Shown here one piece after another: positions 35,032 to 54,327 of a DNA stretch of 64,000 nucleotides. Made by a program: the position numbers and the translations under genes. Origin of the DNA: Psychrobacter alimentarius (GTDB lineage Bacteria > Pseudomonadota > Gammaproteobacteria > Pseudomonadales > Moraxellaceae); assembly GCF_001606025.1 (NCBI RefSeq), contig NZ_CP014945.1, positions 1,984,001 to 2,048,000 on the forward strand, given 5' to 3'. Each line of letters begins with the position of its first letter. The first letter of the stretch is position 1. The notes beneath the pieces are model-generated. The model made no database searches, was not told the DNA's origin, and saw only the letters and a list, made by a program, of their open reading frames with translations.

Positions 35032-35106
35032 GCGGGAATAGCTCAGTGGTAGAGCATAACCTTGCCAAGGTTGGGGTCGAGAGTTCGAATCTCTTTTCCC
35101 GCTCCA
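35032..35106 (+). tRNA. tRNA-Gly (anticodon GCC)
   Basis: A full cloverleaf can be drawn: acceptor GCGGGAA pairs with TTCCCGC, D-arm GCTC-AGTGGTA-GAGC, anticodon arm CCTTGCCAAGG with GCC, and T-arm with GTTCGAATC. The discriminator is T and CCA is encoded (35104-35106). It has its own promoter and terminator. It lies next to an integrase module, and tRNA-Gly genes are common integration sites. Confidence 0.97.
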
Positions 35107-36187: not shown

Positions 36188-37432
36188 ATGGCTACTATGC
36201 GAGGACGGTTTGGTAAGCTGGTCGTTGACTTCCGCTACTTAGGTAAGCGCTGTCGAGAAAAGACCAGTTTAGAAGACAACCCAGCTAATCGTAAAAAATT
36301 AGCGCAAGTCATGAAAAAAATGGAAGCAGAAATCACCCTAAATATTTTCGACTATGCTGCTTACTTCCCAAAGAGTGAACGAGCGCAGGAGATGACGGCA
36401 CTGGCTGATAGAGCCGAAGCTTGTATCAGTCGCAATCCGACCTTTAAGGAGTTTTCTGAAACGTTTTTTGAGGAGAGGAAGATTGAATGGCGACCTAGCT
36501 ATCGGCAAAAGATACAGATTATTTTGGAAAAGTATTTGTTACCTGAGTTTGGTGGTAAAGCGGTACATGCCATAAAAAAATCAGACTTGCTGACCTTCCG
36601 TAGCTCCCTCGCCAAAGTTCGTTACGGTAAAGATGGTCAGTCAAGTCTGTCAGTAGCACGGATCAACCAGATCATGATACTTCTTCGTATGATACTAGAA
36701 GAAGCGTCAGATCGCCATGAGTTTGAGATGCCTTATAAAAATATTAAGAATCTCAAGCAAGCTCGTCCTGATGTAAATCCGTTTACATTGAGCGAGGTAT
36801 GGCTGATTTTAAAGCATGTTCGTGCTGATTATAGACCCTACTACACTATCCGCTTTTTTACAGGGATGCGTACCAGTGAGATTGATGGGCTTAAGTGGGA
36901 CTGTATTAACTTTGATCGGCGTGAAATCAGTATCAGAGGGGCATTGGTAAACGGGGAGATGGGTCCGACTAAGACATTAGGCTCACAGCGCGATATTGCG
37001 ATGTCACAACTGGTCTATGACGCCCTCCAAGAGCAGAAGGCAAGCACCTTTGGTAAGTCTGAGTTTGTGTTTTGCAATTCACAAGGCAATCCGATGGAGT
37101 ACCGTAATGTGAATAGGCGGATATGGAAGCCCACCCTTGCCCTCCTCGGTCTGAAACATAGGCGTGCTTATCAAACTCGGCACACGGCAGCGACGCTTTG
37201 GTTAGCTGCTGGTGAAAATCCTGAGTGGATTGCTAGGCAGATGGGTCATAGCAGTACGGAGATGTTGTTTCGGGTCTACAGCCGCTATGTCCCTGATATT
37301 ACCCGTCAAGATGGCTCAGCGATGGATAACTTACTACTTGCGAGTAAGGAGAAGTTAACAGGCGCATCGAATAGCTCTGGAGCTGAAACACTAATCACGA
37401 ATGCACAAACTGACAAGGAGACGTCACAATGA
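36188..37432 (+). CDS. Tyrosine recombinase / phage-type integrase (414 aa)
   Basis: The N-terminus (MATMRGRFGKLVVDFRYLGKR) resembles the DUF3596 Arm-DNA-binding domain. Residues about 78-190 form the core-binding SAM-like domain. The catalytic domain has Arg228 in TGMRTSEIDGLKW, the box YQTRHTAAT with Arg331 and His332, MGHSS, and a nucleophile Tyr364 or Tyr367 in RVYSRYVPD. It should integrate the element into a tRNA gene, most likely the tRNA-Gly 1.1 kb to the left. It reads away from the tRNA. The following gene starts 4 bp before its stop, suggesting translational coupling. All catalytic residues appear intact. Confidence 0.93.
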   Translation: MATMRGRFGKLVVDFRYLGKRCREKTSLEDNPANRKKLAQVMKKMEAEITLNIFDYAAYFPKSERAQEMTALADRAEACISRNPTFKEFSETFFEERKIEWRPSYRQKIQIILEKYLLPEFGGKAVHAIKKSDLLTFRSSLAKVRYGKDGQSSLSVARINQIMILLRMILEEASDRHEFEMPYKNIKNLKQARPDVNPFTLSEVWLILKHVRADYRPYYTIRFFTGMRTSEIDGLKWDCINFDRREISIRGALVNGEMGPTKTLGSQRDIAMSQLVYDALQEQKASTFGKSEFVFCNSQGNPMEYRNVNRRIWKPTLALLGLKHRRAYQTRHTAATLWLAAGENPEWIARQMGHSSTEMLFRVYSRYVPDITRQDGSAMDNLLLASKEKLTGASNSSGAETLITNAQTDKETSQ

Positions 37433-38133: not shown

Positions 38134-38766
38134 TTAGTAATCTTCAGCATATATCGCTCTTAAACGAAAAGATTCATGTTCATCACTAATACTGGTGCAG
38201 TAGTACGTATATAATTCATCAGCTATAACGTTTTTTGCAATAAATGCCACTATATAAGAAATAGTATCTAGTGGGGGGCTTTCGCTACCCTCCATACCTA
38301 GCAACAGCCCTTTGATATTAAGGTTTTCAGGGAACTGACCAACCAACTCATTAGCTGCATTTTTTATCATATCTGTTTCAAATGCATTTGCTATATGAGT
38401 TTGAATAAATTTATATGATTTTTCTCGTTTGAATAAGTTTTTGATATCGTTAACATCTATACCTATTAAGCCACGTGGACTAATATCTAATAATTTAACC
38501 ACTTGATTTACGTCTTCAGGCTGACATTTAACAATACCCTCTATGATATCTAAGCACTTAAACTCATTATCATCTATTTGCAAACCTACTAGGAAATAAG
38601 CCCCTGACTTCTTTTTTAGCTCTTTTAACGCCTTCTCATCCCAGTTATCACTAGTGATAAAACAGCCGATAAAAGACAAAGGGTAGGAATCCATATTTGG
38701 TCGATATAAAAGAGCATTAGATATATCATCTATATACGAGTCGTCAAGCTGGTACTTCATAGTCAT
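38134..38766 (-). CDS. FtsZ C-terminal-domain-like protein, copy 1 (210 aa)
   Basis: The N-terminal 95 residues are unassigned. From residue 99 the protein resembles the FtsZ/tubulin C-terminal domain: GLIGIDVNDIK matches the FtsZ synergy (T7) loop GLMNVDFADV, keeping both acidic residues (Asp104 and Asp107). After it come an A/N helix (IKNAANELVGQFPE) and the strand pattern ending TYYCTSISDEHESFRLRAIYA. No GTP-binding GGGTG motif is present. It is clearly related to the protein at 42366-43040 (shared YRP..DSY, GWDE/NWDE, GIDVNDIK). I infer it might contact host FtsZ or a partner tubulin-like protein. The internal ATG at 38760 has better ribosome-binding spacing. It follows the PD-(D/E)XK gene by 89 bp. 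Confidence 0.55.
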   Translation of the reverse strand: MTMKYQLDDSYIDDISNALLYRPNMDSYPLSFIGCFITSDNWDEKALKELKKKSGAYFLVGLQIDDNEFKCLDIIEGIVKCQPEDVNQVVKLLDISPRGLIGIDVNDIKNLFKREKSYKFIQTHIANAFETDMIKNAANELVGQFPENLNIKGLLLGMEGSESPPLDTISYIVAFIAKNVIADELYTYYCTSISDEHESFRLRAIYAEDY

Positions 38767-38855: not shown

Positions 38856-39887
38856 CTATTGACTTATTTGACTCTGATACTGATTTATCGTATAGCTAAT
38901 ATATTTTTGCAAGTTTTCCATTAGCGTCTCTATCTTTCGAAAATCAACTGAACTATCATTATTGAGGTTGAAAACATCAGTACTTAGTATGGCAAAAGTC
39001 ATATGCTTTCCTGAACCAAACTTTTTAGGCTTAATAACTTCAAAATCGAAGTTAGGTGCTTGGGCTACAAACAACTTATAAAACTCATTTCTAATCTTTC
39101 TACGACCATTTTTACTGGGAACAGAAACTTTAAAGCAAATTTTATCTTGTTCTAGTAGTAAGTAAACATCAACATCATTCACTCTATGTTTGAATGCCCA
39201 AAAGCCCATAAAGCCTCCTGACTTATTAGCCACATATTTCCAGTTCCCTTCTCCTAAATATGACTGTAAATATTGAAAAAAACCTATCCATGCACGTTTT
39301 CCCCATTCTGCCACTGGTTGGGACTCAAATTTTTGTACTGCACTTTCAATAGACTGAATGTAGTCATAAAAATTAGTATATATATCACTGTATTTTAATA
39401 CTTCATTTTGTTCATTATCGAAGATGTCTAATAAGTCTTTTCTGACAACAGGATAAAAACCATCTTTTATAACTTTTTTATAACTACTCTGATCATGAGT
39501 CTGCAAATAAATAGGGATAATATTATCTTCTTCAAATGTTTGAGAGTGTCCGTTAAGTATAAATTGCTTGTATCGAGTCAACTGCTCGGAATGCTGAACA
39601 CTACCTACTTTATCCTCGATTAATATACAGTAAGTATCATTAAGGACACATAAGATATCGATATTACTCACATGACGTTGCACTACTATACTGTCAATAC
39701 TGGTTGGTAGAGTTTTACCAGCTTTATCGAAGAGTAATGCTAAAACACTAATTGCAACTTTATTCAAAGCTTTATGTTTATCATTTCCTGTTTTATAATC
39801 TTTCTTCGCCCAAGAAAGAAGCCAACATATAAATGCATCTTGTGACAGCTCAGAGGTAGCAAATTTAAATAAATTAGGTGTTACCAT
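38856..39887 (-). CDS. PD-(D/E)XK nuclease family protein (343 aa)
   Basis: The N-terminal half holds the nuclease core: DAFICWLLSWAKKD at the start, then NIDILCVLNDTYCILIEDKV, with Asp and the E-D-K as the PD-(D/E)XK catalytic set, followed by HSEQLTRYK. This matches the PDDEXK_4 type found often in defence islands. The C-terminal part (from about residue 190) is unassigned and basic. It should cut DNA, with target unknown. The ATG has AAGGA six bases upstream. It precedes the first FtsZ-like gene and follows a decayed WYL regulator gene, the same gene types as in the neighbouring cassette. Confidence 0.75.
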   Translation of the reverse strand: MVTPNLFKFATSELSQDAFICWLLSWAKKDYKTGNDKHKALNKVAISVLALLFDKAGKTLPTSIDSIVVQRHVSNIDILCVLNDTYCILIEDKVGSVQHSEQLTRYKQFILNGHSQTFEEDNIIPIYLQTHDQSSYKKVIKDGFYPVVRKDLLDIFDNEQNEVLKYSDIYTNFYDYIQSIESAVQKFESQPVAEWGKRAWIGFFQYLQSYLGEGNWKYVANKSGGFMGFWAFKHRVNDVDVYLLLEQDKICFKVSVPSKNGRRKIRNEFYKLFVAQAPNFDFEVIKPKKFGSGKHMTFAILSTDVFNLNNDSSVDFRKIETLMENLQKYISYTINQYQSQISQ

Positions 39888-39995: not shown

Positions 39996-40387
39996 TTTCG
40001 TAAACTGCCATCCCATTTTTTAAACGCTCGAGAGTAACTGTTTTTATTTCCAATGGGTCAATAACAACAGACAACTGTGACATAATCACTAACCAACCTT
40101 GCAGGTGATTAGTATTAGCAACGGTAGCACAGACTTGATTCCAAATTTTGTCGATAGCAATAATCTTCTAATCAACTAATAATTAGTGCTCATATGAATA
40201 CTGACGGGCAGACTTTTGAATCTTTAAAATCAGCTCTATATGGCTGTCGTTAGTTGGCTATAACTTACCCAATTTGCGTAAACTCTCTAATGAAAAAGCG
40301 TATAGCCCTACCTAATCAAGTATTGGCTTATCTATTATCCTAACCTCGGTAATATGATTTATCGAAAAATTACGATGAGCTTCTAAC
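39996..40387 (-). pseudogene. Remnant of a WYL-domain regulator gene
   Basis: The DNA is clearly similar to the 3' part of the intact WYL gene at 43065-44159 along its whole length: for example CGCTCGAGAGTAACTG against CGCTCAAGAATAACTG, and the later stretches around CAAGTATTGGCTTAT. Stops and indels interrupt the frame, so no product is expected. Homology ends abruptly at 40387, where a short IS-end-like inverted repeat begins. It shows that the adjacent nuclease/FtsZ-like pair once had its own WYL regulator. No other gene is visible in 39888-40521. Confidence 0.75.
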
Positions 40388-40521: not shown

Positions 40522-41793
40522 TTATTTAGTTAATAATCCATTATCATTTAACACTTTATAGTACCAATCAAGCTCTGCAATAATTTTATATGCCATTTTT
40601 TTATTATGGATTTGTTCCCATGGCTCAGTTTTAGACCACCAATCATGTGGTTCAAAATTATACCAAGCACACCAATAACCTCCTTTTTCTTTGTCTTCTT
40701 CTGCTTTTATATTTTCACTAGCAAGACTATGGCCATCTTTACACTTAGTTAGAATTTTTTCATAATATTCATAGTCTGGCTTTACATCATCATTAGCTAT
40801 AAAAATCCCTAAATAAGGAAAGTTGAAAACCGTACCTCCAAAACCTAAACAAAACTCTAAAGCACTTTCTTTAATATTAAAAGTGATTTGCTCTTCTTTC
40901 TTGATACCTTTTAGATTGGTTTTAATCATTGAATAAGGTTTGTTTCCTTTTGCAATGATAGTCGTAAGATCGTGTTGTAACTTCTCAATAAGTTGCTTTT
41001 TCATGTCATGAGTACTTAAAGCTATTTTTAATGCGCTAGTTATATTTTCTTGACTAGATAGCATCGTATTTAATACAGACTTCGCTTCATTCATATTTTC
41101 TATTCCCATGAACTGTTTTTGAATAAACTTAGTTAGCTGTGCAATAAATTCACTCACACTATGATTTTGGCATTCTACTTGACACGCTTTGAGCCAACCA
41201 ATCAGATCGCTAAATCTAAGATGACTATATTGATTACTGGTTTTCCAATATTCTAAGGTTTTAGTATCAACACTATATTCACTTGGTACGTCATTATCTT
41301 CGTTTAGATAAACAAGATGCCACAGCTTGTGTTTCCTATTTTTAAGTTCAGTAGCATAATCTTTCATTTGGTCAAGTTGATCTGCTGCATAAGGTTTGTT
41401 TTCGATACAAATACCGTAGCTGTCATTACCCACCTGACATCTTAAGTAAATATCCATACGACGCTGGGTGTTACTTTTTCCCGTTATTTCTTCAAGAAAA
41501 ACCTCTGTTTTCTCAAGGTTATTGAGCATTGTCTGCCAGTTATCATCTTTATATATAACAGGCAGACAATGCTCAACGAATAACCTTAAAAAGCTTTCTT
41601 GCTGAGCATGACTTCCTTTAGGATCAAGCAGAGCCGCTAGAATACGACTAAGTCCTAATTCATCGGTATTAATATAATCAAAAGTACTGAAGTCTGGAGA
41701 CAGTTGACGGCTATAGAGTGCTTGCGCTGTCTCTAATGCATTAATCTTTTGGCTCACATCATTGATTAAACTTTGCACGGTACTCATACTCAT
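40522..41793 (-). CDS. PD-(D/E)XK nuclease family protein (423 aa)
   Basis: The nuclease core is in the N-terminal half: RRMDIYLRCQVGNDSYGICIENK, giving Asp and E-N-K, with a conserved Gln-containing helix (DQLDQMKDY) after it, as in PDDEXK_4 enzymes. The N-terminus (DELGLSRILAALLDPKGSH) is the typical entry helix of this group. The C-terminal region from about 270 is unassigned. It is the last gene of the group read from 45343, 30 bp after the DUF1810 gene. DNA cleavage is inferred from the motif only. Confidence 0.75.
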   Translation of the reverse strand: MSMSTVQSLINDVSQKINALETAQALYSRQLSPDFSTFDYINTDELGLSRILAALLDPKGSHAQQESFLRLFVEHCLPVIYKDDNWQTMLNNLEKTEVFLEEITGKSNTQRRMDIYLRCQVGNDSYGICIENKPYAADQLDQMKDYATELKNRKHKLWHLVYLNEDNDVPSEYSVDTKTLEYWKTSNQYSHLRFSDLIGWLKACQVECQNHSVSEFIAQLTKFIQKQFMGIENMNEAKSVLNTMLSSQENITSALKIALSTHDMKKQLIEKLQHDLTTIIAKGNKPYSMIKTNLKGIKKEEQITFNIKESALEFCLGFGGTVFNFPYLGIFIANDDVKPDYEYYEKILTKCKDGHSLASENIKAEEDKEKGGYWCAWYNFEPHDWWSKTEPWEQIHNKKMAYKIIAELDWYYKVLNDNGLLTK

Positions 41794-41823: not shown

Positions 41824-42276
41824 TCACTTATATTGCTGGTCATTGATTTGCTTTAGTATTTTAATAGTGTTTATATCGTAACTGCCTGCGTAGAACTGAT
41901 ATAAAAGTTTCTCAAATACACACTTATTACCAGCAGCAAAAGCAAATAACGTTAGCGAAGATTGCAGCTTCAAGTTATCTGGTGAACCAAAGATATTTAA
42001 AGCGCTTTTATCAGGGTGCAACAGTAGTAATTCAGCGCACTCTATCAATTTTGCTCCAAGCACCTCATGCTGCAAATACGCTTTCGCTTGCTCCAGACTC
42101 CCTATTGCAAATCGTCGAGACATTTTACTGTGCCCTAATCCTTTCACCTGTGGAAAAATAAACCACATCCAATGCGTACGTTTATGACCTTGGGTCAACT
42201 CTTCAATCACTTGTGAATAGATAGTATTTTGAGCTTGGATAAAATCATCAAATAAATCTTTATCTATCGTTGTCAT
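41824..42276 (-). CDS. DUF1810 family protein (150 aa)
   Basis: The protein matches the DUF1810 family throughout: QAQNTIYSQVIEELTQGHKRTHW, then MWFIFPQVKGLGHS and a later LKLQSSLTLFAFA. The biochemical function of the family is not known. I place the start at ATG 42276 because AAGGAG lies eight bases upstream of it; the in-frame GTG at 42285 overlaps that site. It lies inside the WYL, FtsZ-like and nuclease gene group with same-strand spacing, so it is probably co-transcribed. It may be an independent passenger or an accessory part. Confidence 0.85.
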   Translation of the reverse strand: MTTIDKDLFDDFIQAQNTIYSQVIEELTQGHKRTHWMWFIFPQVKGLGHSKMSRRFAIGSLEQAKAYLQHEVLGAKLIECAELLLLHPDKSALNIFGSPDNLKLQSSLTLFAFAAGNKCVFEKLLYQFYAGSYDINTIKILKQINDQQYK

Positions 42277-42365
42277 TTTCTGCACTCCTTGCTATTTAAT
42301 TAATGAGCGTTTGCCTGCCTGCCACGCTCACAACGTACGTAAAACCATATATAGTTAATGCTAGA

Positions 42366-43040
42366 CTAACTAGCCACATATATCGCCCCCATCCAATAAT
42401 GGTCAGGTTTATCAATCATCCTATTGCCGTAAAACACTTTTGAATCGTCAGCAATCCGACTTTCAACAGCAGTTGTGACGCTAAAGAACTCATCAAGAGA
42501 TAGCTTATGATCGCTTTCAATATCAAGCATCATATATTGGGTACTAAGACCTTCAGGAATTTGATTGAGCAGATGATTAACGGTACTCTTTATTTGTTCT
42601 GAATCTGGTATGTCCGTTGCCCTAGCCTGTATAAAATTGGCAGGCTTTTCAGCCCCGCAAGATTTTTTGATATCATTAACATCTATACCAACCTTATCAC
42701 GATCAGATAATACTGATTCAAACACGGTTTTTATCTGCCCGACTTCATCAGCTTTGCAAACAATAATACCGTCTATAACCTCGAACCTATCAATGTGCTT
42801 ATCTGTGGTTTGTAGCGCAAACAATGTGCAACCGACTTGTTGTTGTAGATTTAGCAATGACTGTTCATCCCAACCATCTTCAATAACAATAAACCCAACC
42901 TCAGACAAGTGGTAGCTATCTGCTTGCGGTCTATACAAAGTAGCTAAAGGTATGGGCTCTATCTGAAGCTCATCATTACATTCTTTTTTAATATCATTTT
43001 TTAGAGTCTGTTTATTTTTAAAAATACTATCTACTGTCAT
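42366..43040 (-). CDS. FtsZ C-terminal-domain-like protein, copy 2 (224 aa)
   Basis: The C-terminal half follows the FtsZ C-terminal domain closely. The T7-like loop KVGIDVNDIKK has Asp120 and Asp123 at the positions of the FtsZ pair that completes the GTPase site of the neighbouring subunit. LSLDEFFSVTTAVES then corresponds to FtsZ LRLDEFETVGNTIRA, and SKVFYGNRMID to the ATVVIGTSLD strand. The N-terminal 110 residues are not a GTPase domain and lack GGGTG. It is a paralogue of the protein at 38134-38766. AAGGAG precedes the ATG. It starts 24 bp after the WYL gene, in one probable operon. Interference with or sensing of host FtsZ is an inference. Confidence 0.6.
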   Translation of the reverse strand: MTVDSIFKNKQTLKNDIKKECNDELQIEPIPLATLYRPQADSYHLSEVGFIVIEDGWDEQSLLNLQQQVGCTLFALQTTDKHIDRFEVIDGIIVCKADEVGQIKTVFESVLSDRDKVGIDVNDIKKSCGAEKPANFIQARATDIPDSEQIKSTVNHLLNQIPEGLSTQYMMLDIESDHKLSLDEFFSVTTAVESRIADDSKVFYGNRMIDKPDHYWMGAIYVAS

Positions 43041-43064: not shown

Positions 43065-44159
43065 TTATTCATCGGTTTTATAAAGCTGCATCCCACTTTC
43101 TAGACGCTCAAGAATAACTGCCTTTAGCTCTAATGGTTCAATGACGACCGACAATTGCGACATACTTACCAGCCAATCTTGCAAACGAGTCGTATTAGCA
43201 ACTGTAGCGCTGACTTGATTCCAAGTGTCATCGATAATAGTAATTTGCTGATCTATCGATAAGGGACGCTCATAAAGATGCTGACAGGCATATTTCTGTA
43301 CTTTTAAAATCAGTTTAATCTGGGTATCGTCGGTCGGCTCTAACCTACCCAGTTTATGCAAACTCTTTAACGAAAAAGCATCTCGCCCTACCCAGTCAGG
43401 TATTGGCTTATTTATGACGCTAGCTTGGGTAATACGGTTAACTGCAAAATTGCGATGCGCTTTTAACAACTCCTTATCATCGATATGATCGTTTACTGGA
43501 TAAAAGCCTGTTAGATACATCATGTTATCGATAAATACCAAACCGCACGGATAGATCAACTTTTCACTAGCATTATCGTCCCACTTTTTTTGATAACGAA
43601 TATGAAGTTGCCTGTTCTCTAACAAGGCTTTATGAATGCTGGTAAGTACCTCACTATTAAGGGTTGGCGCTTGTACGATGCTTGGCAAAGTTATCAGATG
43701 CAGCTGCCACTGTCCTAATGAGCTATTGGCGAAAACGTACTGATCTTGACGTTTAATTTGCGATAGCTTAGCAGATATGATCTGCTGCATAGAGACTGGC
43801 AAATAGTTAGCGGTGTAATTACTGAGCATCTCCCAAAAAAATACGGTTTGCTCGCTGACAACATCGGTACTAAAGCTTGGCTCAATATAGAAGCGTGCGG
43901 TTTGACCGTTGATGTTTTGCTCCCACGCTGGCACTCTGACTAGAGCATCATTATGAAAAATATTATCGAAAATATTTTTTAAGCTGGTCAAATCGTTCTC
44001 TAAATTTTTTCGGTCGCTGGCGAAGCAATCAGGATTATCACCATAGGCGCTCATCAGCTCGGTAAGCGAGACAGCTTTAGCTTTATCACGCGGTAGACGT
44101 TGATAGAGGATAAACAAGCGCTCTGATTTGGTGTAGCTGGCGATAGGATGATTTGGCAT
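43065..44159 (-). CDS. WYL-domain transcriptional regulator (364 aa)
   Basis: Residues about 5-75 form an N-terminal helical DNA-binding region (SERLFILYQRLPRDKAKAVSLTE). The WYL domain spans about 165-260, with LHIRYQKKWDDNASEKLIYPCGLVFIDNMMYLTGFYPV, followed by a C-terminal extension (LSVVIEPLELKAVILERLESG). WYL proteins often sense a ligand such as single-stranded nucleic acid and control defence genes. It lies between a PD-(D/E)XK gene (17 bp upstream) and the FtsZ-like gene (24 bp downstream), so it probably controls this group. A decayed paralogue lies at 39996-40387. Confidence 0.85.
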   Translation of the reverse strand: MPNHPIASYTKSERLFILYQRLPRDKAKAVSLTELMSAYGDNPDCFASDRKNLENDLTSLKNIFDNIFHNDALVRVPAWEQNINGQTARFYIEPSFSTDVVSEQTVFFWEMLSNYTANYLPVSMQQIISAKLSQIKRQDQYVFANSSLGQWQLHLITLPSIVQAPTLNSEVLTSIHKALLENRQLHIRYQKKWDDNASEKLIYPCGLVFIDNMMYLTGFYPVNDHIDDKELLKAHRNFAVNRITQASVINKPIPDWVGRDAFSLKSLHKLGRLEPTDDTQIKLILKVQKYACQHLYERPLSIDQQITIIDDTWNQVSATVANTTRLQDWLVSMSQLSVVIEPLELKAVILERLESGMQLYKTDE

Positions 44160-44176: not shown

Positions 44177-45343
44177 TTAGTTCAATAATTGGTGATTCAA
44201 CTGATGCTTATCCGCCTCGTAATCGTTTAGAATCGCCATTAATTTAACAATTCTTTCTGATACCTTTTTTATTTCAAAGTCGTTGTACTTCCACATAAAC
44301 CTCCAAGTATTGCTCCCATCAGATTTGTTCTCGTAGGTCTTAATATTAATTTCGCACTGTTTCAATAAACTATCTACTTGGTCCTTAAAAATTCCATTTT
44401 CGTTAAAAAAATCTATATGAATCGTAAAATTCATTTCGTTAGCTTCGTAATTCCTAATACAGAACACCACACATGAAGATGAGTTTTCCCATCTTTCGTT
44501 ATAAAATCGAATATACGGTTCATAATAATTCCATTTATCAATTTTTGTTTTACCAGAAAAACCTTGCAAACTATTTCTTAAATCAATGTTTATCTTCGCA
44601 GCTATTTTAGGAATAATATCCTTATAGAGATATTCACTTAACTTAAAGTAGTCATTTATATTTTTCGTCAAAAACTCAATCTCATCTTCACTTATTTCAC
44701 CCACGTTATCTAACTCCTTTAAATGTAATAAAAACTCTCTAGCGAACAGACCCCACTTGTTATAGGGGTTATCTAATAACGCCTTTGATAAATGCGGTTC
44801 AATAGCTTCTACTAAATTTTGATAAGAAATGCCGTGCCAACCATTATTCTTAATGACATCATCAATTCTACCGTCAAGACAAAGCACTATTTGGACTAAG
44901 TTCTTGTCTCGCTCATCTTCTTTTTTATTGTCTGTAATACGGTGCCTACCATAGCTGGTGTAGTCATCAAACGGATTATTTTGCTCATGATAAATCTTAC
45001 ACTCGACTATGATTAAGGCGTCTTTCGTTTCGATTAACAAGTCGATGCGATTGCCTTTGGCGGTTGATACTTCAGTCTCTACATTTTCCAAGCTGCCAAG
45101 GGTAGCCATCTTGTTTTTGTTTTCTAATAAATATTTTAGCCCTTTAAAAAAGCAATCTCCTAAATTATGAGCTTTAGCTTTGTCTAGAAAGAAGCTGAGC
45201 AGTTCCGTCGTTGGGTTTTCAAAGTGACCACGAGCACCGACATCAAATAGTGTGAGCTCTTTGGTTACGATATCTAGCTGTTTAAACTTATCGAACAGCG
45301 CTTTAAAGCTTTTTAGATTAGATCCACTTGCTAAATCAGTCAT
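44177..45343 (-). CDS. PD-(D/E)XK nuclease family protein (388 aa)
   Basis: The core motif NRIDLLIETKDALIIVECKIYHEQNNPF gives Asp, then E-C-K, followed by a Tyr/Arg-rich DDYTSYGRHR segment. The N-terminus shows PTTELLSFFLDKAKAHNLGDCFF, the entry helices of PDDEXK_4 proteins. The C-terminal half (from about 210) is unassigned and rich in aromatic residues. It is the first gene of the apparent operon with WYL, FtsZ-like, DUF1810 and a further nuclease, and its upstream gap contains no terminator-like hairpin. Function as a restriction-like or abortive-infection nuclease is inferred. Confidence 0.77.
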   Translation of the reverse strand: MTDLASGSNLKSFKALFDKFKQLDIVTKELTLFDVGARGHFENPTTELLSFFLDKAKAHNLGDCFFKGLKYLLENKNKMATLGSLENVETEVSTAKGNRIDLLIETKDALIIVECKIYHEQNNPFDDYTSYGRHRITDNKKEDERDKNLVQIVLCLDGRIDDVIKNNGWHGISYQNLVEAIEPHLSKALLDNPYNKWGLFAREFLLHLKELDNVGEISEDEIEFLTKNINDYFKLSEYLYKDIIPKIAAKINIDLRNSLQGFSGKTKIDKWNYYEPYIRFYNERWENSSSCVVFCIRNYEANEMNFTIHIDFFNENGIFKDQVDSLLKQCEINIKTYENKSDGSNTWRFMWKYNDFEIKKVSERIVKLMAILNDYEADKHQLNHQLLN

Positions 45344-45438: not shown

Positions 45439-46296
45439 TCATTCAAAACGAACCAATGTCGCGGTGCCATTGTCATAAGCATTGCCATCGGAGTCATAAA
45501 CTTGGTTCTTGAGATTGATTAACCAAGCTTGTAAATCGGTTTCAGCACTGACAAGTTGCCAATGACGACTCGGCACCAAGTCATGAATACCATCCGTACA
45601 AACCAAGAGACAGTCGCCACTATTAATATCAATCTTGCAAGAGCTGCCTTCTGGTGCTTCACTGCTTAGATAACTTTCGTCAGCCGTCAATACAAAGCAC
45701 TCAGTAATACTATATAAACTCCCCGCCATACCTTCTCGGTTATAGTCAGCGAGCTTCGCTTGGCTACCTTGTTCTTGTGCCTGCTGGTCAATAAGCTCAT
45801 TCAATAGATTATGATCTCGAGTCAGGCACTGCCACTGTGACGTCCCTTTAGGTAGCCAATAAATACGACTGTCACCCACATGCGTTATCGTCGCCTTTAT
45901 TGTTCCATCGCTATCTAACTCACAGGTAACCATCGCGAGGGTTGCCGCCGCGCCATGACGCTTAGATAAATGCTTGGTTTGATTAATCAGCTGATGAATA
46001 CTGTCTGAGCAGATATTCTTCTGATCGTTCCATAACCTTCTGATTGCTTTTACCACCGCTTTTGAGCAGTGCTGCGAGTGATTAGAGCTTGCCACGCCAT
46101 CAGACACTGCTAGGCAAAATGGTAATGCAACTGGTGTCACTGCCATCACACCTAGATCTTCTTGATACCAATTATCTAAAAAGAAAAAAGCGTCTTGCTG
46201 CAGGTTATTACTAGCATTCCCTAGAAAGGTAATTGCACAGGTCTGTGCAATAGAAAGAGTTTCTTTTAAAGGACAATGGTCAAGAGAAAAAGCCAT
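45439..46296 (-). CDS. PP2C-family serine/threonine protein phosphatase (285 aa)
   Basis: This cytoplasmic protein has the PP2C motif set: CLAVSDGVASSNHS with the metal-binding Asp, ATITHVGDSRIYWL, LTRDHNLL, and LLVCTDGIHDLV, with the other metal-binding aspartates. It should remove phosphate from Ser/Thr of partner proteins, using Mn or Mg. PP2C phosphatases usually pair with a Ser/Thr kinase; none is visible in the window. It is 95 bp upstream of the nuclease/WYL group on the same strand and may belong to that transcript or act alone. Confidence 0.88.
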   Translation of the reverse strand: MAFSLDHCPLKETLSIAQTCAITFLGNASNNLQQDAFFFLDNWYQEDLGVMAVTPVALPFCLAVSDGVASSNHSQHCSKAVVKAIRRLWNDQKNICSDSIHQLINQTKHLSKRHGAAATLAMVTCELDSDGTIKATITHVGDSRIYWLPKGTSQWQCLTRDHNLLNELIDQQAQEQGSQAKLADYNREGMAGSLYSITECFVLTADESYLSSEAPEGSSCKIDINSGDCLLVCTDGIHDLVPSRHWQLVSAETDLQAWLINLKNQVYDSDGNAYDNGTATLVRFE

Positions 46297-47099: not shown

Positions 47100-48119
47100 T
47101 TACTGATCGTTTTGCGGATAGCGCTCTTGGTCTATCTCATTCCAGTCCATGTAGGTTTTTTTAGAAAGCACTTTCCCTTGGCGGTCTAATGTATAGCGCG
47201 TGATACTGTCATAGCCATTATCATAAGCATTAGCGCTTTTAGTATTTAGGTTATAGACATCGAGCTTCCCATTTTCATAGCGACCACCATCGACATCTAC
47301 GGCATCCCCCATTGGCTCTATATAAGCCATGTCATATTTTGGTGAGACAATGACCTTACCTGTTTTATCGATGACACCCCATTTACCACTTCTATAGTCT
47401 CCAATCTTGACAGCAGACAGTCCTTCTGAGAACTCCATTGCCTCATCCCATTTAGCTGCTATCATTGTTTTGCCAGAGGTGTCCACAAAGCCTGTTTTGC
47501 TCTCTTCATCACCCAATGTAGATGTGCTATATCTGGCCAATCCTTCTGAATAGTCATCTAGCCAGTTAAATTTAAACGGTACGACTGTTTTGCCTGTTTT
47601 ATCAATTGCTCCAAATTTATCGTTTTTACTCACCACTGCTAGCCCATCATTAAAGTCACCGGCACTCTGATATAAATAAGGTATGGTCATTTTCCCTACC
47701 TTATTCATATAGCCGTATTTACCGTCTTTATATGCGGCTACCATACCTTCTTGGAAATCTCGAAAATCAATATAATAGCCACCAGTCATCGGTGCTTGAT
47801 GCTCAACAGGTATGACTAATTTACCCGCTTCGTTAATATAGCCTTGCCAGTACAGATAGTCTTCATAGTCCTCACCGCCGTCATAGCTCTTGACCATTCC
47901 CATTTTCATGATCGCGACACGAGCCATACCTTCAGAGAAGCCACCACAGCTATAATATTTTGCAGGTACGATGACTTTTCCTCTGTCATCTTTGTAGCCA
48001 CACTGAGGTTGCTCCGTATTCTCTAACTCAAAAGCTTGTAAGCTAGCGGTTGCACTACTTGCGCCAAACGCTGCACATAGACCCAATATCATCGCCCCTT
48101 TAGTCTTATTCTTCTTCAT
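47100..48119 (-). CDS. Secreted WG (KWG) repeat protein (339 aa)
   Basis: A signal peptide is predicted (MKKNK start, hydrophobic stretch, cleavage near SATAS). The rest consists of about eight WG-type repeats of roughly 40 aa with the recurring pattern D-x-x-G-K-x-x-I/V-P-x-x-Y/F-x-x-x-x-x-F-x-E/D-G-x-A, for example KYGYMNKVGKMTIP and KFGAIDKTGKTVVP. Such repeats form beta-propeller-like or solenoid surfaces for protein binding; function is not known. It lies between the TM0106-type gene, after its terminator, and the 173-aa secreted protein gene. Confidence 0.85.
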   Translation of the reverse strand: MKKNKTKGAMILGLCAAFGASSATASLQAFELENTEQPQCGYKDDRGKVIVPAKYYSCGGFSEGMARVAIMKMGMVKSYDGGEDYEDYLYWQGYINEAGKLVIPVEHQAPMTGGYYIDFRDFQEGMVAAYKDGKYGYMNKVGKMTIPYLYQSAGDFNDGLAVVSKNDKFGAIDKTGKTVVPFKFNWLDDYSEGLARYSTSTLGDEESKTGFVDTSGKTMIAAKWDEAMEFSEGLSAVKIGDYRSGKWGVIDKTGKVIVSPKYDMAYIEPMGDAVDVDGGRYENGKLDVYNLNTKSANAYDNGYDSITRYTLDRQGKVLSKKTYMDWNEIDQERYPQNDQ

Positions 48120-48519: not shown

Positions 48520-51500
48520 TTAATGTAGAAATATAGCTTGTTCTGTATATGTAGCGTTTGTATCGCTACTCATATACATGACTGCATTAAATAAATTTAC
48601 TTTTCTTAGCTGTTCGACACTGTTAACAGAGGTATTACCAAGATTAGGATTTGCTACTACGATAGCTAATGTTTGCGCTCTAGAAATCGCCACATTAATG
48701 CGGTTTTTATCGAATAAGAAGTCCATACCTCGAGGCGACTCATTGGCATCACTAGCACACATACTCAAAAATACGATTGGAGACTCTTGACCTTGAAATT
48801 TATCTACGCTTCCAACTTTTGCTTGTTTACCCAAGACGTTTTTTAGCTTACTAACTTGATGATTGTATGGGGCGACAAACAACATATCGTCCCATGTGAT
48901 TGGTCGAACAACTGCCTCTCCATTATCTTTAGTCAAACCAGTATGAAGCATACAACCCAGTAGCGACTTAGCCAATTGCTCAATCATTGCCACTTCCTCA
49001 TCAGAAGCTTGAGTATTACCCTCATGCTCTACAGGAACAAAAATAATGCCTGCCTCGGTGTTTATGTGCATATCTAACGTTTGGGGGACAATACTATGAT
49101 TGGCTGTGGGTTCTAATACTTTTAAAATACGCTTATCATTATCAAGGTGAGATCTTAATTTGCTTTCATAGATTAGCTGACTGATAACTGTGTTGACCTT
49201 ACTATGCATACGATAGGTCATGTCTAAGAACACACCCATATCTGCAGATATGGTTGGTGTATCATGTAATAAATAGTCCAGTATAGATAGCCCGCTTTTA
49301 GCAGGATGCGTACCTTGTGAAGGTTGACCTAGTTGCATCTGATCACCCATCAATACCAGATTTCTAGCGCTACGACTCATAGCAACTAAGTTGGCTGTTG
49401 ATACTTGACCTGCTTCATCAACAAAAAGATAATCGAGCTGATCTGCCATGTCCTCACGAGCAAATCCCCATGCAGTTGTGCCGACAACACATGCTGGCTG
49501 AATATGATTGGCTAATTGATTGTTGCTTATTATAGTCACGTCATAATCAGAAAGTTCATCATCTGTTTCTTTGGTGCAGAAAGACGATGCTTTTATATTA
49601 TTCTGTTTACAGTGCTTGGCCGTGCTAAGTAATAGATTGTTGATCGCTTTATGGCTATTACTTGAGATACCAATTTTCGCCCCTGACTTAAGCAAATGAG
49701 CGATTGCATGTTTCCCTGTGTAAGTTTTACCTGAACCCGGAGGACCTTGTATCGGCAGGTAACTACTATCGAGATTACTAATGGCTATGATGACTTGCTT
49801 TAAGCGAGTATCTGGTTCCTCACTGCTGACGATATCACCACCTTTGTGATTTAATAGTCTTGGCTTTACACCCGTTAAAAAATCCATAATGGCAGATTTT
49901 TTCTGTCTAAATAAACCTTGTTCATACTCGACCACCGTTTTAAATACTGCTTCTGCAATAACCTTACTAGATATAAGTTCATCGGGAATGAGCGATACCA
50001 TACTTGGTGGTTCATGTTTAGCTTTGAGTACAATTACCCCATTTCCTAAATCACTATCCTCTTTAACCAACCCTACTGTGACGTTTTTATCTTCAGATGT
50101 TTCTACCCCAAGGACATAAAAATTGTTTGCAGCACCTTTGAATTCTTGATTAATATCAAATCGGTATTCGTAACTTAGATTTCTAGCTTTTGGTGATGAT
50201 TTGAATGGCTCTCTTTGTGTACGCTCGCAAAGAGCAAGACAATCTAGGTCATCCATAAGCATCACTTCCTCTGAGCCAAGCCGATCAAATAACCTCCAGA
50301 ATAAAGGCTTGGCCTCGCGACGATGAAAATCTAACATCCATGCTAGATTCTCAGTGAGTTGTGCTTGCTTAGAGTCGACTAGTAACTCTGTTTGGGCTTG
50401 GGCTAATAGACGGTCACGCAGTGCAGTAACCATAGTTGCTTCTTCAGATATTTCTGGCTCAATAACTTCAGCTTTACCTAAATAGTCAATATTATGAATT
50501 GTTTGTTGTTCTCTTAGCCATACTGCTAGCTCTTGCGTCGAGTCACAATCATCAATATTATAATCTCGAATATCACTAAGTATTTTTGAAGTTTGCCAAG
50601 TATCTCCTTCCTCGCCCCGTTGGTATAACGCTCGCCACTGGTCATAAACAATGATCGAATCACTGCCGTTACCCACTTGTGTATTACGCTTATTACGGTA
50701 CAGAAGCTCCACATTTTTAATCGAGTACCGAGGAGCACCTAATCGCAAGCCGCCCTTTACTACCTTATATAAATCGACAAATACTTCATTTCTTAGTAGT
50801 TGATCAACCTCAAATTCACAGATACCATAGCGTCCCATCAGCTTACGACAAGCTGTAACTTCGTAACTGGCATAGTGGTAAATATGCATACTGGGGTCTT
50901 GTTGCCATCTATCGTAAGCCCAATGGATGAAATCTTGGAAACACTGTTTTTCCTGTTCACGATTGTGAGCCCAAAAGTCCTTGAACTGACGGTTGCCATG
51001 CTCATCCAAATAGCTATTACCCCACAGATATTCTAGCCCACCTTCATCGAGCGGAAAACCTTCAATATCAAAGAATACATCCATCGGAGAATCAGGTGGC
51101 AGTAATGTCAGTCCTTTTTTCTCACCTTGCGCAGGTTTTATTATTTCAAACTCTGGTCTAGCGCTATCAATCATCACCTCTGGTCTTTGACTTTTTAACT
51201 TACTCTTTATTTGTATACTCGCTTGAGCTTTAAGTTTAGTAAATATCGTAGAATGCATACCACCCACAGAAAATATAGATGAGTCTGCAAGCTGCTGCAT
51301 GGTATGTATACCTACCTTATTAAGCTTCTTAATTTGTCCTTTGGTAATACTTGCTACTTGGCATAAATGATCTTTACTGAGCAAAATCTGTTCGGCATGG
51401 TTACTCCAGTTACCCCAACTTTCAGAATCAGCAGGGTTTGGACAATGATTTATGTGGAATTCAGCATGCTCTTTTAGAAAGGTGTCTTTCAATTTTAAGT

Positions 51501-52074
51501 AATAATAGTAAAAGTCATAAGTCCTTAATACTTGTACCTCACCATTGCCAAGAGCAACCGTAATATACTGAGGTAAACATCCTTGAATAGACTCAAGCAT
51601 TTGAGCATAGCAACATAACTGAATGATAAATGTCGGCTTTACTCTACTGGCAAGCTTAGTATCCCATACCTCATAATGCCAATTACCAAAACTACTTGGT
51701 AGATGCTCTGGCTCATGATTCACCTTGACCAAGAAGTCAGCAAATCCTGCAAACTGATCCAGTTCCAGCCTTGCTTGCACAATTATTTCGACACCACTTT
51801 GCATTGCTTGCAAAGTTTTAGCATATCTTTCATCATTGTTCTCCCCCTCAATTTTTATTAGATTCTTACCTTCGGCTATAAACATTGCCTCCAGCTTATC
51901 CTCATGCTGATAACCTTTTTGTTGCAGCATTACCATGAGATCATCGTTGGGATCTTGCTTTGGTACTAACTCTGGATATTCTTGAGCAAACCTATCCATC
52001 CATGAAGCGAAAGGACTTTCCATATATTTGGTTAGATCCGATGGGGAGTAATACATATGCTCTTTTTTATACAT
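48520..52074 (-). CDS. TM0106-family RecB-like nuclease / RNase H-like / SF1 helicase fusion (1184 aa)
   Basis: Three parts can be seen. Residues about 1-230 form a RecB-type nuclease-like domain (GYQHEDKLEAMF, then HYEVWDTKLASR with Asp and the T-K pair). Residues about 335-520 form a DEDD exonuclease/RNase H-like domain (DVFFDIEGFPLDEGG, then YHYASYE and DYNIDDCDSTQ). From about 760 it is an SF1 (UPF1-like) helicase: P-loop IQGPPGSGKTYTG near 775, Walker B DEAG near 884, DKFQGQES and INVAISRAQTL near 1127. This is the TM0106 architecture; similar enzymes occur in DNA repair and defence settings. The ATG at 52074 has AGGA six bases upstream. It is divergent from the LRR gene. Confidence 0.88.
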   Translation of the reverse strand: MYKKEHMYYSPSDLTKYMESPFASWMDRFAQEYPELVPKQDPNDDLMVMLQQKGYQHEDKLEAMFIAEGKNLIKIEGENNDERYAKTLQAMQSGVEIIVQARLELDQFAGFADFLVKVNHEPEHLPSSFGNWHYEVWDTKLASRVKPTFIIQLCCYAQMLESIQGCLPQYITVALGNGEVQVLRTYDFYYYYLKLKDTFLKEHAEFHINHCPNPADSESWGNWSNHAEQILLSKDHLCQVASITKGQIKKLNKVGIHTMQQLADSSIFSVGGMHSTIFTKLKAQASIQIKSKLKSQRPEVMIDSARPEFEIIKPAQGEKKGLTLLPPDSPMDVFFDIEGFPLDEGGLEYLWGNSYLDEHGNRQFKDFWAHNREQEKQCFQDFIHWAYDRWQQDPSMHIYHYASYEVTACRKLMGRYGICEFEVDQLLRNEVFVDLYKVVKGGLRLGAPRYSIKNVELLYRNKRNTQVGNGSDSIIVYDQWRALYQRGEEGDTWQTSKILSDIRDYNIDDCDSTQELAVWLREQQTIHNIDYLGKAEVIEPEISEEATMVTALRDRLLAQAQTELLVDSKQAQLTENLAWMLDFHRREAKPLFWRLFDRLGSEEVMLMDDLDCLALCERTQREPFKSSPKARNLSYEYRFDINQEFKGAANNFYVLGVETSEDKNVTVGLVKEDSDLGNGVIVLKAKHEPPSMVSLIPDELISSKVIAEAVFKTVVEYEQGLFRQKKSAIMDFLTGVKPRLLNHKGGDIVSSEEPDTRLKQVIIAISNLDSSYLPIQGPPGSGKTYTGKHAIAHLLKSGAKIGISSNSHKAINNLLLSTAKHCKQNNIKASSFCTKETDDELSDYDVTIISNNQLANHIQPACVVGTTAWGFAREDMADQLDYLFVDEAGQVSTANLVAMSRSARNLVLMGDQMQLGQPSQGTHPAKSGLSILDYLLHDTPTISADMGVFLDMTYRMHSKVNTVISQLIYESKLRSHLDNDKRILKVLEPTANHSIVPQTLDMHINTEAGIIFVPVEHEGNTQASDEEVAMIEQLAKSLLGCMLHTGLTKDNGEAVVRPITWDDMLFVAPYNHQVSKLKNVLGKQAKVGSVDKFQGQESPIVFLSMCASDANESPRGMDFLFDKNRINVAISRAQTLAIVVANPNLGNTSVNSVEQLRKVNLFNAVMYMSSDTNATYTEQAIFLH

Positions 52075-52437: not shown

Positions 52438-54327
52438 ATGACAATCAAAAGAGATCCAACTATCAAGCCGTGGATGGAAGAAATCTGGGTATGGGCAGAT
52501 AAGCTTGAGCTCTCAGAAGAGCTAATGCCTCGTGATATTAATGCTTTACTAGCCTTGACTGAATTAATACTAATTGAAAAAAATATCACCGAAGTACCAG
52601 ATTCTATAGGTAACCTTAAGAACCTTAAGGTCCTTAGTCTTAGTGAGAACTATAAGCTAAAAGCACTTCCAGAAAGTATTGGCGATCTTGTGAATCTAGA
52701 AGAATTATCACTTTATTACAATGCATTGAATGCGTTACCTGATAGCATTGGCAAACTAAGAAATTTAAAAGAGTTTAATTTAGATGGTAACAAACTTAAG
52801 ACACTTCCAGAAAGTATTGGTAATCTTTCGAACCTAGAAAAATTATCACTTCATTACAATGCATTGAATGCTTTACCTGATAGCATTGGCAAACTAAGAA
52901 GTTTAAAAGAGTTTAGTTTAGACGGTAACAAACTTAAGACACTTCCAGAAGGTATTAGTGATCTTGTGAACCTAGAAAAATTATCATTTCATTACAATGC
53001 ATTGAATGCTTTACCTGATAGCATTGGCAAACTAAGAAGTTTAAAAGAGTTTAATTTAGTCGGTAACAAACTTAAGACACTTCCAGAAAGCATTGGTGAT
53101 CTTGTGAACCTAGAAGAGTTGAATCTTGATGATAATGGGTTGAGTACGCTACCTGATAATATTGGTCAAATGAAAGACTTGAAGATACTTGGCTTAGGAG
53201 TTAACAAACTTAAGACACTTCCAGAAAGTATTGCTCAAATGAAAAACTTGGAGAAGCTCAGTTTAAACGGCAACAAACTTAAGACGCTTCCAGAAAGTAT
53301 TGGTAGTCTGGCAAACCTGGAAGAATTGAGTCTTAACGATAATCTATTGAGTACGTTACCTGATAATATTGGCAAAGTAAAAAGCTTGAGAACGCTCAAC
53401 TTACAAAGTAATAAACTTAAGATGTTTCCGAAAAGTATTAGTGACCTCTCAAGCCTAGAGTATCTGACAATTGCCTATAATACGTTAAACGCCTTGCCTG
53501 ATAGCATTGGTCAAATAAAAAATTTGAAGTCACTTAGCTTAGAAGGTAACGAACTTAAGGTAATTCCAGAAAGTATTGGCGATCTTGTAAATCTAGAATA
53601 TTTGATTCTTAACAATAATATACTAAATACGCTACCTGATAGCATTACCAAGCTAAAGGATTTATATTCGTTATCACTTTGTGATAACTACCTAACCGAT
53701 TTATCTATAAAAGTTACTCAATTCTTGGAAGGATTAGGAGACACTGTTGATGATTGGAAACCAGATACTTACGATTTAGCCGTAGCACAAGAGCCTAGTT
53801 ATGAAATTTATTTAGATGAAGTTCCTGATACTGTTACTATTGATGAAGTAAAGTTAGATGATGACACTATTGAAGCAATAGAAAAACAAGTTACAAATGT
53901 TCTTGATAAAATTATTAGGGATAATATTACTGGTTTTGATCAAGACGTAGGTTACAAGGTACGTCCTGGTTATGGCTATGATAAGTTCTATTTAGATTTT
54001 GTTGATGGTTCATTTGACATGAGCTTACAGAGTTTAATACATTATATTATGCATGAAGACGGTCATTATCAGAAATTCTTAAATAGATCGCAATATGCTA
54101 GATTACTATATACATTACAACAGTATCCAGAATCTATTTTCAATCTCGACCATGATTTAGATGAGAATTACGATCGTATACAGCATGACACGTTAGATAG
54201 AATTTACTATCAGTCTGTTAGATTTGTAGGTACAGCTTTGATAAAAAATGGATTTGATGTAAGAGATACTTTCGAAGAGTATCTAGATGGTTGGGATGTG
54301 AATATTGATGGAGATAAAAATGTGTAA
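52438..54327 (+). CDS. Leucine-rich repeat protein with an unassigned C-terminal domain (629 aa)
   Basis: No signal peptide or membrane segment is seen. Residues about 45-430 hold around 16 to 17 LRRs of 23 aa with the pattern LPESIGxLxNLExLxLxxNxLxx. The DNA of several repeats is nearly identical, indicating recent internal duplication. Residues about 440-629 form an acidic C-terminal domain (TIEAIEKQVTNVLDKIIRD, then GYKVRPGYGYDKFYLDFV), not recognised; it includes HEDGH at 539-543, the form of a zinc-protease HExxH motif. The ATG has AGGAAG upstream. The next gene starts within its last 8 bases, so the two products are probably made together. It may sense or bind a partner through the LRRs. 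Confidence 0.8.
   Translation: MTIKRDPTIKPWMEEIWVWADKLELSEELMPRDINALLALTELILIEKNITEVPDSIGNLKNLKVLSLSENYKLKALPESIGDLVNLEELSLYYNALNALPDSIGKLRNLKEFNLDGNKLKTLPESIGNLSNLEKLSLHYNALNALPDSIGKLRSLKEFSLDGNKLKTLPEGISDLVNLEKLSFHYNALNALPDSIGKLRSLKEFNLVGNKLKTLPESIGDLVNLEELNLDDNGLSTLPDNIGQMKDLKILGLGVNKLKTLPESIAQMKNLEKLSLNGNKLKTLPESIGSLANLEELSLNDNLLSTLPDNIGKVKSLRTLNLQSNKLKMFPKSISDLSSLEYLTIAYNTLNALPDSIGQIKNLKSLSLEGNELKVIPESIGDLVNLEYLILNNNILNTLPDSITKLKDLYSLSLCDNYLTDLSIKVTQFLEGLGDTVDDWKPDTYDLAVAQEPSYEIYLDEVPDTVTIDEVKLDDDTIEAIEKQVTNVLDKIIRDNITGFDQDVGYKVRPGYGYDKFYLDFVDGSFDMSLQSLIHYIMHEDGHYQKFLNRSQYARLLYTLQQYPESIFNLDHDLDENYDRIQHDTLDRIYYQSVRFVGTALIKNGFDVRDTFEEYLDGWDVNIDGDKNV

What the first reader, a model, noticed from the sequence alone, without database searches (positions are those of the whole stretch)
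42366..43040. Small proteins resembling the C-terminal domain of FtsZ, with its catalytic T7-loop acids but no GTPase domain, in a defence-type cassette
The T7-like loop (GIDVNDIK, Asp120 and Asp123) and the segments LSLDEFF and VFYGNRMID line up with FtsZ in order and spacing; the copy at 38134-38766 has the same loop (Asp104, Asp107). In FtsZ this loop supplies the acids that complete the GTPase site of the next subunit. A lone domain of this type could cap or disrupt host FtsZ filaments and stop division, a possible abortive-infection effector or sensor. It occurs beside a WYL regulator and PD-(D/E)XK nucleases. I know of no described defence system with this make-up.
Basis: partly seen in the sequence, partly recalled or inferred. 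Interest (0 to 1): 0.9.

Follow-up and report, generated by a model that had tools for sequence, protein, structure and literature searches.

The report
Half-copy of FtsZ as phage bait
Psychrobacter bacteria carry, in a cassette with predicted DNA-cutting enzymes, shortened copies of the back half of their lineage's own cell-division protein FtsZ, which likely act as bait that would sense viruses trying to jam cell division; if so, this is immunity built from a disarmed piece of the host's own machinery.

The parts
42366..43040 (-). FtsZ-half gene 1 (224 aa), 24 bp downstream of WYL
   Evidence: dN/dS 0.28 among 8 orthologues
42369..42752 (-). FtsZ C-terminal-like part, residues 97-224 (H7-like helix, T7 loop, H8, C-domain)
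   Evidence: profile, hhalign and fold matches
42666..42689 (-). T7 loop GIDVNDIK, residues 118-125 (Asp120, Asp123; Gly118 where FtsZ has Asn)
38134..38766 (-). FtsZ-half gene 2 (210 aa)
38856..39887 (-). PD-(D/E)XK nuclease c (PDDEXK_4; weak PDC-S26, 45 bits)
39997..40386 (-). decayed WYL fragment (62% identity to the WYL at 43065-44159, stops inside), probable scar of a second stacked cassette
   Evidence: G000:C1:2023997-2024386; order WYL-nuclease c-FtsZ half in L045, L134, L136
40522..41793 (-). PD-(D/E)XK nuclease a (PDDEXK_4; PDC-S26, 138 bits)
41824..42285 (-). DUF1810 protein
   Evidence: 173.7 bits
43065..44159 (-). WYL + WCX regulator
44177..45343 (-). PD-(D/E)XK nuclease b (PDC-S26, 464 bits)
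45439..46296 (-). PP2C-type phosphatase
36188..37432 (+). tyrosine integrase at the cassette's edge
35032..35106 (+). tRNA-Gly(gcc), possible integration site (no att repeat found)

Best explanation
The two genes encode a copy of the C-terminal, T7-loop half of this lineage's own FtsZ, without the GTP-binding signature, carried in a PP2C-WYL-nuclease cassette, and they likely work as a bait: phage proteins that jam FtsZ by binding its T7 face would bind this inert half instead, and binding would switch on the attached or neighbouring nuclease. Shown by sequence: grouping inside Moraxellaceae FtsZ, retention of T7-face elements with loss of the assembly asparagine, linkage to PP2C and WYL, fusion to LRR and (one ORF) to the nuclease. 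Inferred: that the partners are phage FtsZ inhibitors, that LRR relays the signal, that the nucleases are the effectors (replaced in some loci by DUF262-type or SIR2 genes), and that WYL and PP2C set expression or activity.
For: Origin: tree; the A3 profile scores Psychrobacter FtsZ at a median 47.8 bits and g7 FtsZ at 52.3, other Moraxellaceae 19.4, other Pseudomonadota 12.8; with A2, which holds no g7 copies, the medians are 37.2, 17.5, 10.5 and 10.0. Copies resemble their own genus's FtsZ: 331 v 185 of 1955 diagnostic cells for Psychrobacter, 251 v 128 of 963 for g7 (cells not independent); among 19 representatives below 60% identity, 13 of 16 and 3 of 3 are closest to their own genus. Filament-face elements are 32% identical to own FtsZ, the rest 18%; 3 of 112 circular shifts do as well. 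Loss of the T7 Asn in 83 of 83 distinct copies would keep a bait from poisoning FtsZ (inference). Fusions: LRR with FtsZ half in 14 of 34 loci, in one of them with the nuclease in the same ORF; FtsZ half + FtsK motor without a P-loop, in a genome that also has its own FtsK. By my reading, 24 of 34 FtsZ-half loci have a same-strand nuclease, DUF262-type or SIR2 gene. Precedents: CapRel-Ebc is triggered by the T7 Gp0.4-FtsZ complex, and Gp0.4 (predicted, HDX), SulA and MciZ bind the T7 face (PMC13423816, sections 8, 10, 11); inactive enzyme domains in other conflict systems, division-related FtsK and MinD/ParA among them, were predicted inactive and a decoy role was proposed (PMC7159879, section 17 and passages).
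Against: No binding, phage or expression data. The Gp0.4 footprint alone is not better preserved than the rest (26% v 23%; 36 of 112 shifts as high). 10 of 34 loci show no same-strand nuclease or NADase gene (one of them is cut by a contig end). The second T7 Asp is kept in 82 of 83 distinct copies, which a filament-binding role explains at least as well. 15 of the 25 best-conserved positions lie in the unexplained N-terminal ~95 residues. The FtsK fusion was seen in 1 of 6 g7 genomes.
Confidence: 0.4

Rival explanations
1. Dominant-negative division blocker: when WYL induces it, the FtsZ half would cap the nucleotide face of host FtsZ filaments and stop division (abortive infection or a damage checkpoint).
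For: T7 Asp pair kept in 82 and 73 of 83 distinct copies; filament-face elements preferentially preserved; sequence tracks own FtsZ; at least one cassette whose only cargo is an FtsZ half (L048); a WYL regulator, DriD, turns on a division inhibitor in Caulobacter (PMC4211646, outline and passages); FtsZ's two domains fold independently (PMC7327170, passages).
Against: The assembly-essential T7 Asn is absent in 83 of 83 distinct copies; LRR and nuclease fusions are not needed for a cap; up to five places per genome (some are fragments) would be a burden; no obvious antitoxin.
Confidence: 0.3
2. Docking module: the FtsZ half would bind FtsZ to bring nuclease, LRR or FtsK-like cargo to the division site.
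For: Fusions with nuclease-LRR (L035) and with an FtsK motor, where it takes the N-terminal place.
Against: Many copies are free-standing; the FtsK P-loop is lost, so that cargo would not pump DNA.
Confidence: 0.13
3. Sponge: the FtsZ half only titrates phage FtsZ inhibitors and keeps division going, with no downstream effector.
For: Loci without a nuclease; inert sequence.
Against: The nuclease fusion and frequent nuclease neighbours.
Confidence: 0.1

Closest known systems
FtsZ (PF12327 FtsZ_C half)
   Same: C-terminal fold, T7-loop Asp pair, groups inside Moraxellaceae FtsZ
   Different: no GGGTGTG motif, ends at the last strand of the C-domain (no linker or tail), T7 Asn lost
CapRel-Ebc sensing of the Gp0.4-FtsZ complex (PMC13423816)
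   Same: FtsZ's T7 face as the thing watched by a defence system
   Different: there the real host FtsZ is used; here a disarmed copy is encoded inside the cassette
Inactive FtsK/MinD domains and rare FtsZ-superfamily domains of vWA-MoxR conflict systems (PMC7159879)
   Same: replicas of division proteins in a defence setting, decoy role proposed for inactive domains
   Different: different core genes (vWA, MoxR); no isolated FtsZ C-half or LRR/nuclease fusion is described in the section and passages I read
FtsZl1 / FtsZl2 (PMC2875224)
   Same: diverged FtsZ relatives
   Different: the reverse: they keep the GTP-binding half; FtsZl1 has no recognisable FtsZ C-half (section 4)
PADLOC candidate PDC-S26
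   Same: the cassette's PD-(D/E)XK nucleases match its models
   Different: no convincing PADLOC match for the FtsZ half; no paper in the library names PDC-S26
BrxR-type WYL regulators (PMC9122601, abstract and outline)
   Same: WYL regulator beside defence genes
   Different: here tied to a PP2C phosphatase and FtsZ halves

Membership tests
FtsZ (tubulin superfamily) | C-terminal domain fold | tested here: met
FtsZ (tubulin superfamily) | Pfam FtsZ_C gathering score | tested here: not met
   13.2 bits v 27; profile-level homology is nonetheless significant
FtsZ (tubulin superfamily) | GTP-binding signature GGGTGTG | tested here: not met
   absent from the translations and alignments
FtsZ (tubulin superfamily) | T7 loop Asn, Asp, Asp | tested here: inconclusive
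   of 83 distinct copies: Asp 73, Asp 82, Asn 0
FtsZ (tubulin superfamily) | GTP-dependent polymerisation | not testable with these tools
   needs purified protein
FtsZ-sensing defence (CapRel-like) | triggered by a phage FtsZ inhibitor | not testable with these tools
   needs phage or co-expression assays
PDC-S26 (PADLOC) | nuclease matches PDC-S26 models | tested here: met
   464 bits (44177-45343), 138 bits (40522-41793)
vWA-MoxR conflict systems | vWA and MoxR core genes | tested here: not met
   no such Pfam hit among the 10 window proteins scanned
FtsZl1/FtsZl2 | N-terminal GTP-binding domain with GGGTG(S/T)G | tested here: not met
   motif absent; definition from PMC2875224 section 4
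BrxR/CapW-type WYL regulators | WYL and WCX domains | tested here: met
   WYL 46.9 bits, WCX 31.1 bits; that these define the type is recalled; HTH and DNA binding not tested

The most novel reading that the evidence does not exclude
A bacterial counterpart of the plant NLR integrated decoy: the lineage's own FtsZ (and once FtsK) copied, disarmed and fused to LRR and nuclease, so that a phage's attack on cell division trips the alarm.
Probability: 0.33. Interest if true: 0.93.

Novelty: new variant of a known kind. Interest (0 to 1): 0.76.

Why it matters
Several phages attack FtsZ, and one defence protein is known to sense FtsZ bound by a phage inhibitor (PMC13423816). Here a lineage has put a truncated copy of its FtsZ into a shuffled regulator-nuclease cassette, often fused to LRRs and once to a nuclease. 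If the bait reading is right, bacteria, like plants, build decoys from the targets of their parasites; it can be tested by two-hybrid and phage plating. Either main reading (bait or cap) would add an isolated FtsZ C-half as a functional unit.

Tried and rejected
Rejected: chance resemblance; a Psychrobacter core gene (46 of 105 genomes at E <= 1e-12 with profile A2; an undercount by at least one, since G055 holds a diverged copy in L122 that A2 missed); a phage gene (FtsZ half 1: no match in 50,697 phage records; neither gene confirmed in viral contigs by a scan that finds close relatives only); widespread in Gammaproteobacteria (369 genomes of the class: besides the own genome two weak matches, in 455- and 469-codon frames at the FtsZ positions, presumably FtsZ itself and not read further); a GTPase-domain remnant recognisable by sequence (29 of 60 shuffles as good).

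Against my reading or limiting it: the T7-loop stretch as a whole is not unusually conserved within the family (49 of 202 windows as low in entropy); the Gp0.4 footprint shows no enrichment; E. coli residue numbers were mapped to this protein by hand with recalled numbering; the filament-face test does not correct for FtsZ's own slower evolution there. The high g7 FtsZ score with profile A3 is partly due to the four g7 rows in A3 (with A2 it is 17.5 bits). dN/dS used 8 sequences (7 of 13 loci L002-L014, one of those 13 being the window itself, plus the window); the rest failed a motif or length filter. The 87 copies passed E < 1e-15 and length filters or were chosen P-entries; 4 are repeats (83 distinct), and 27 of the 30 'g7' copies are protein clusters assigned to g7 by similarity. 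The tallies over 34 of 41 loci are my reading; 8 loci were fetched because no FtsZ half was listed there, and one of them (L122) proved to hold one. The Fisher values ignore relatedness, and its 84 FtsZ-half places include gene fragments. Tree support comes from ~110 columns with long branches. In L035 the LRR scores lie under Pfam's cut-offs (LRR_14 35.3 v 40 bits). 'DUF262-type' is a recalled label: PADLOC matches these proteins to HEC-06, Orf5 and SspE models.

Full report
WHAT IS THERE. The window lies in a Psychrobacter-type genome (G000:C1:1984001-2048000; genus name from the named relatives). All cassette genes are on the minus strand. In order of transcription: PP2C phosphatase 45439-46296, PD-(D/E)XK nuclease b 44177-45343, WYL+WCX regulator 43065-44159, FtsZ half 1 at 42366-43040 (24 bp after WYL), DUF1810 41824-42285, nuclease a 40522-41793, a decayed WYL fragment 39997-40386, nuclease c 38856-39887, FtsZ half 2 at 38134-38766. 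The WYL scar, and the order WYL-nuclease c-FtsZ half in L045, L134 and L136, suggest two stacked cassettes. The cassette lies next to a tyrosine integrase (36188-37432) and tRNA-Gly (35032-35106). The stretch 33.1-38.1 kb recurs, wholly or in large part, in L034, L041, L127, L128, L129, L133 and L135, each with its own version of the cargo. I found no att repeat.

ORIGIN. Profile A3 scores FtsZ of Psychrobacter (7 sequences, median 47.8 bits) and of a second Moraxellaceae genus, g7 (4, median 52.3), above other Moraxellaceae (34, 19.4) and other Pseudomonadota (30, 12.8). A3 holds four g7 rows; with A2, which holds none, the medians are 37.2, 17.5, 10.5 and 10.0. In an ML tree of ~110 columns (19 representatives and 75 FtsZs) the family is one clade (support 79), grouped with g7 FtsZ (99) and then Psychrobacter FtsZ (95), inside Moraxellaceae FtsZ. 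Each genus's copies mostly resemble that genus's FtsZ more (13 of 16 and 3 of 3 representatives). So the domain is a truncated copy of this lineage's FtsZ that either was renewed or has kept tracking it.

THE T7 LOOP. Of 83 distinct copies, the second Asp (window Asp123) is kept in 82 and the first (Asp120) in 73. The preceding Asn, found in 74 of 75 FtsZs, is kept in none (Gly in 69). In S. aureus FtsZ, substitutions N208L, D210N and D213N each suppress assembly, and the filament contacts of this half are T7, H8, S9 and H10 (PMC8936486, passages). These elements (residues assigned by hand) are 32% identical to own FtsZ, the rest of the domain 18% (3 of 112 shifts as high); the Gp0.4 footprint alone is 26% against 23% (36 of 112). 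The gene is under purifying selection (dN/dS 0.28, 28 pairs of 8 sequences). 15 of the 25 best-conserved positions lie in the N-terminal half, among them Cys95 in 19 of 19 representatives; that half is unexplained.

ASSOCIATION. In 105 Psychrobacter genomes the FtsZ half (E <= 1e-12) is in 46, WYL in 46 (41 shared), PP2C in 45 (39 shared with the FtsZ half), nuclease a in 24 (19 shared). 47 of 54 WYL places lie within 8 kb of an FtsZ half; of 63 FtsZ-half clusters, 45 have WYL within 8 kb, 40 PP2C within 10 kb, 24 nuclease a within 8 kb, and 20 hold two or more places. One genome counted as 'WYL without FtsZ half' (G055) holds a diverged copy next to its WYL (L122). The family-level search found the domain in 48 of 299 Moraxellaceae genomes, and the g7 search in 2 of 6. 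Gene orders at 41 loci (34 with an FtsZ half) show, in most, a PP2C-WYL head and a reshuffled cargo; by my reading 24 of 34 have a same-strand nuclease, DUF262-type or SIR2 gene. Neighbours in some loci include type I restriction, DUF262-type proteins and a type I-E CRISPR-Cas. PADLOC assigns nucleases b and a to PDC-S26. In 14 of the 34 loci LRR is fused to an FtsZ half; L035 joins nuclease a, LRR and FtsZ half in one 748-aa ORF. In g7 (L046) a 630-aa ORF joins an FtsZ half to an FtsK motor and gamma domain: it is 40% identical to the genome's own FtsK over 402 aligned positions, and 20 residues of the gamma core are identical, but the P-loop is gone.

MECHANISM. Shown: a disarmed FtsZ half, grouped with this lineage's FtsZ, in a shuffled regulator-nuclease cassette. 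Inferred: bait for FtsZ-directed phage proteins. The precedents are CapRel-Ebc, which responds to Gp0.4 bound to FtsZ's T7 face (PMC13423816; abstract, passages and sections 8, 10, 11 read), and the proposed decoy role of inactive domains in other conflict systems (PMC7159879; section 17 and passages read). The loss of the T7 Asn is what a bait that must not poison FtsZ would need; the kept Asp pair is what a cap would need. I put bait at 0.4 and cap at 0.3. The WYL-controlled division inhibitor of Caulobacter (PMC4211646; outline and passages) is the best precedent for the cap.

KNOWN OR NEW. Searches of the paper library for FtsZ with phage defence, LRR, decoy, WYL, capping or Psychrobacter (several lists were capped) listed no paper on an FtsZ C-terminal half in a defence cassette; most subscription papers and bioRxiv preprints are outside that library. 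No NCBIfam match, and no convincing PADLOC match, covers the FtsZ halves (two PADLOC hits at E about 0.01 are taken as chance).

Noticed in passing
L046 5823-7715 (-): FtsZ half fused to an FtsK motor without a P-loop, with 20 identical residues in the gamma (DNA-reading) core; the genome also has a normal-length FtsK.
   Followed up: partly
window 39997-40386: Decayed WYL fragment between nuclease a and nuclease c: probable scar of cassette stacking.
   Followed up: partly
L087 10581-11647 (plasmid pP62BP1): Plasmid FtsZ half directly after a HicA-type toxin gene and a 60-residue protein, near a LlaMI-type endonuclease and cytosine methyltransferase.
   Followed up: no
L046 14193-15053, L047 10851-11744: SIR2-family gene directly after FtsZ halves in g7, where Psychrobacter often has nucleases.
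   Followed up: no
window 52438-54327: Stand-alone 629-aa LRR gene just outside the cassette, similar to the LRRs fused to FtsZ halves; possible donor.
   Followed up: no
window 48520-52074: 1184-aa RNase_H_2 + helicase protein, partly MkoA-like in PADLOC (144 bits).
   Followed up: no
window 47100-48119 and flanks of L036, L037, L041, L118, L126, L128, L137: WG-repeat proteins sit beside the cassette in these loci.
   Followed up: no
window 41824-42285: DUF1810 is a frequent cassette partner (e.g. L032, L034, L118, L126-L129, L132, L133, L135); its function is unknown to me.
   Followed up: no
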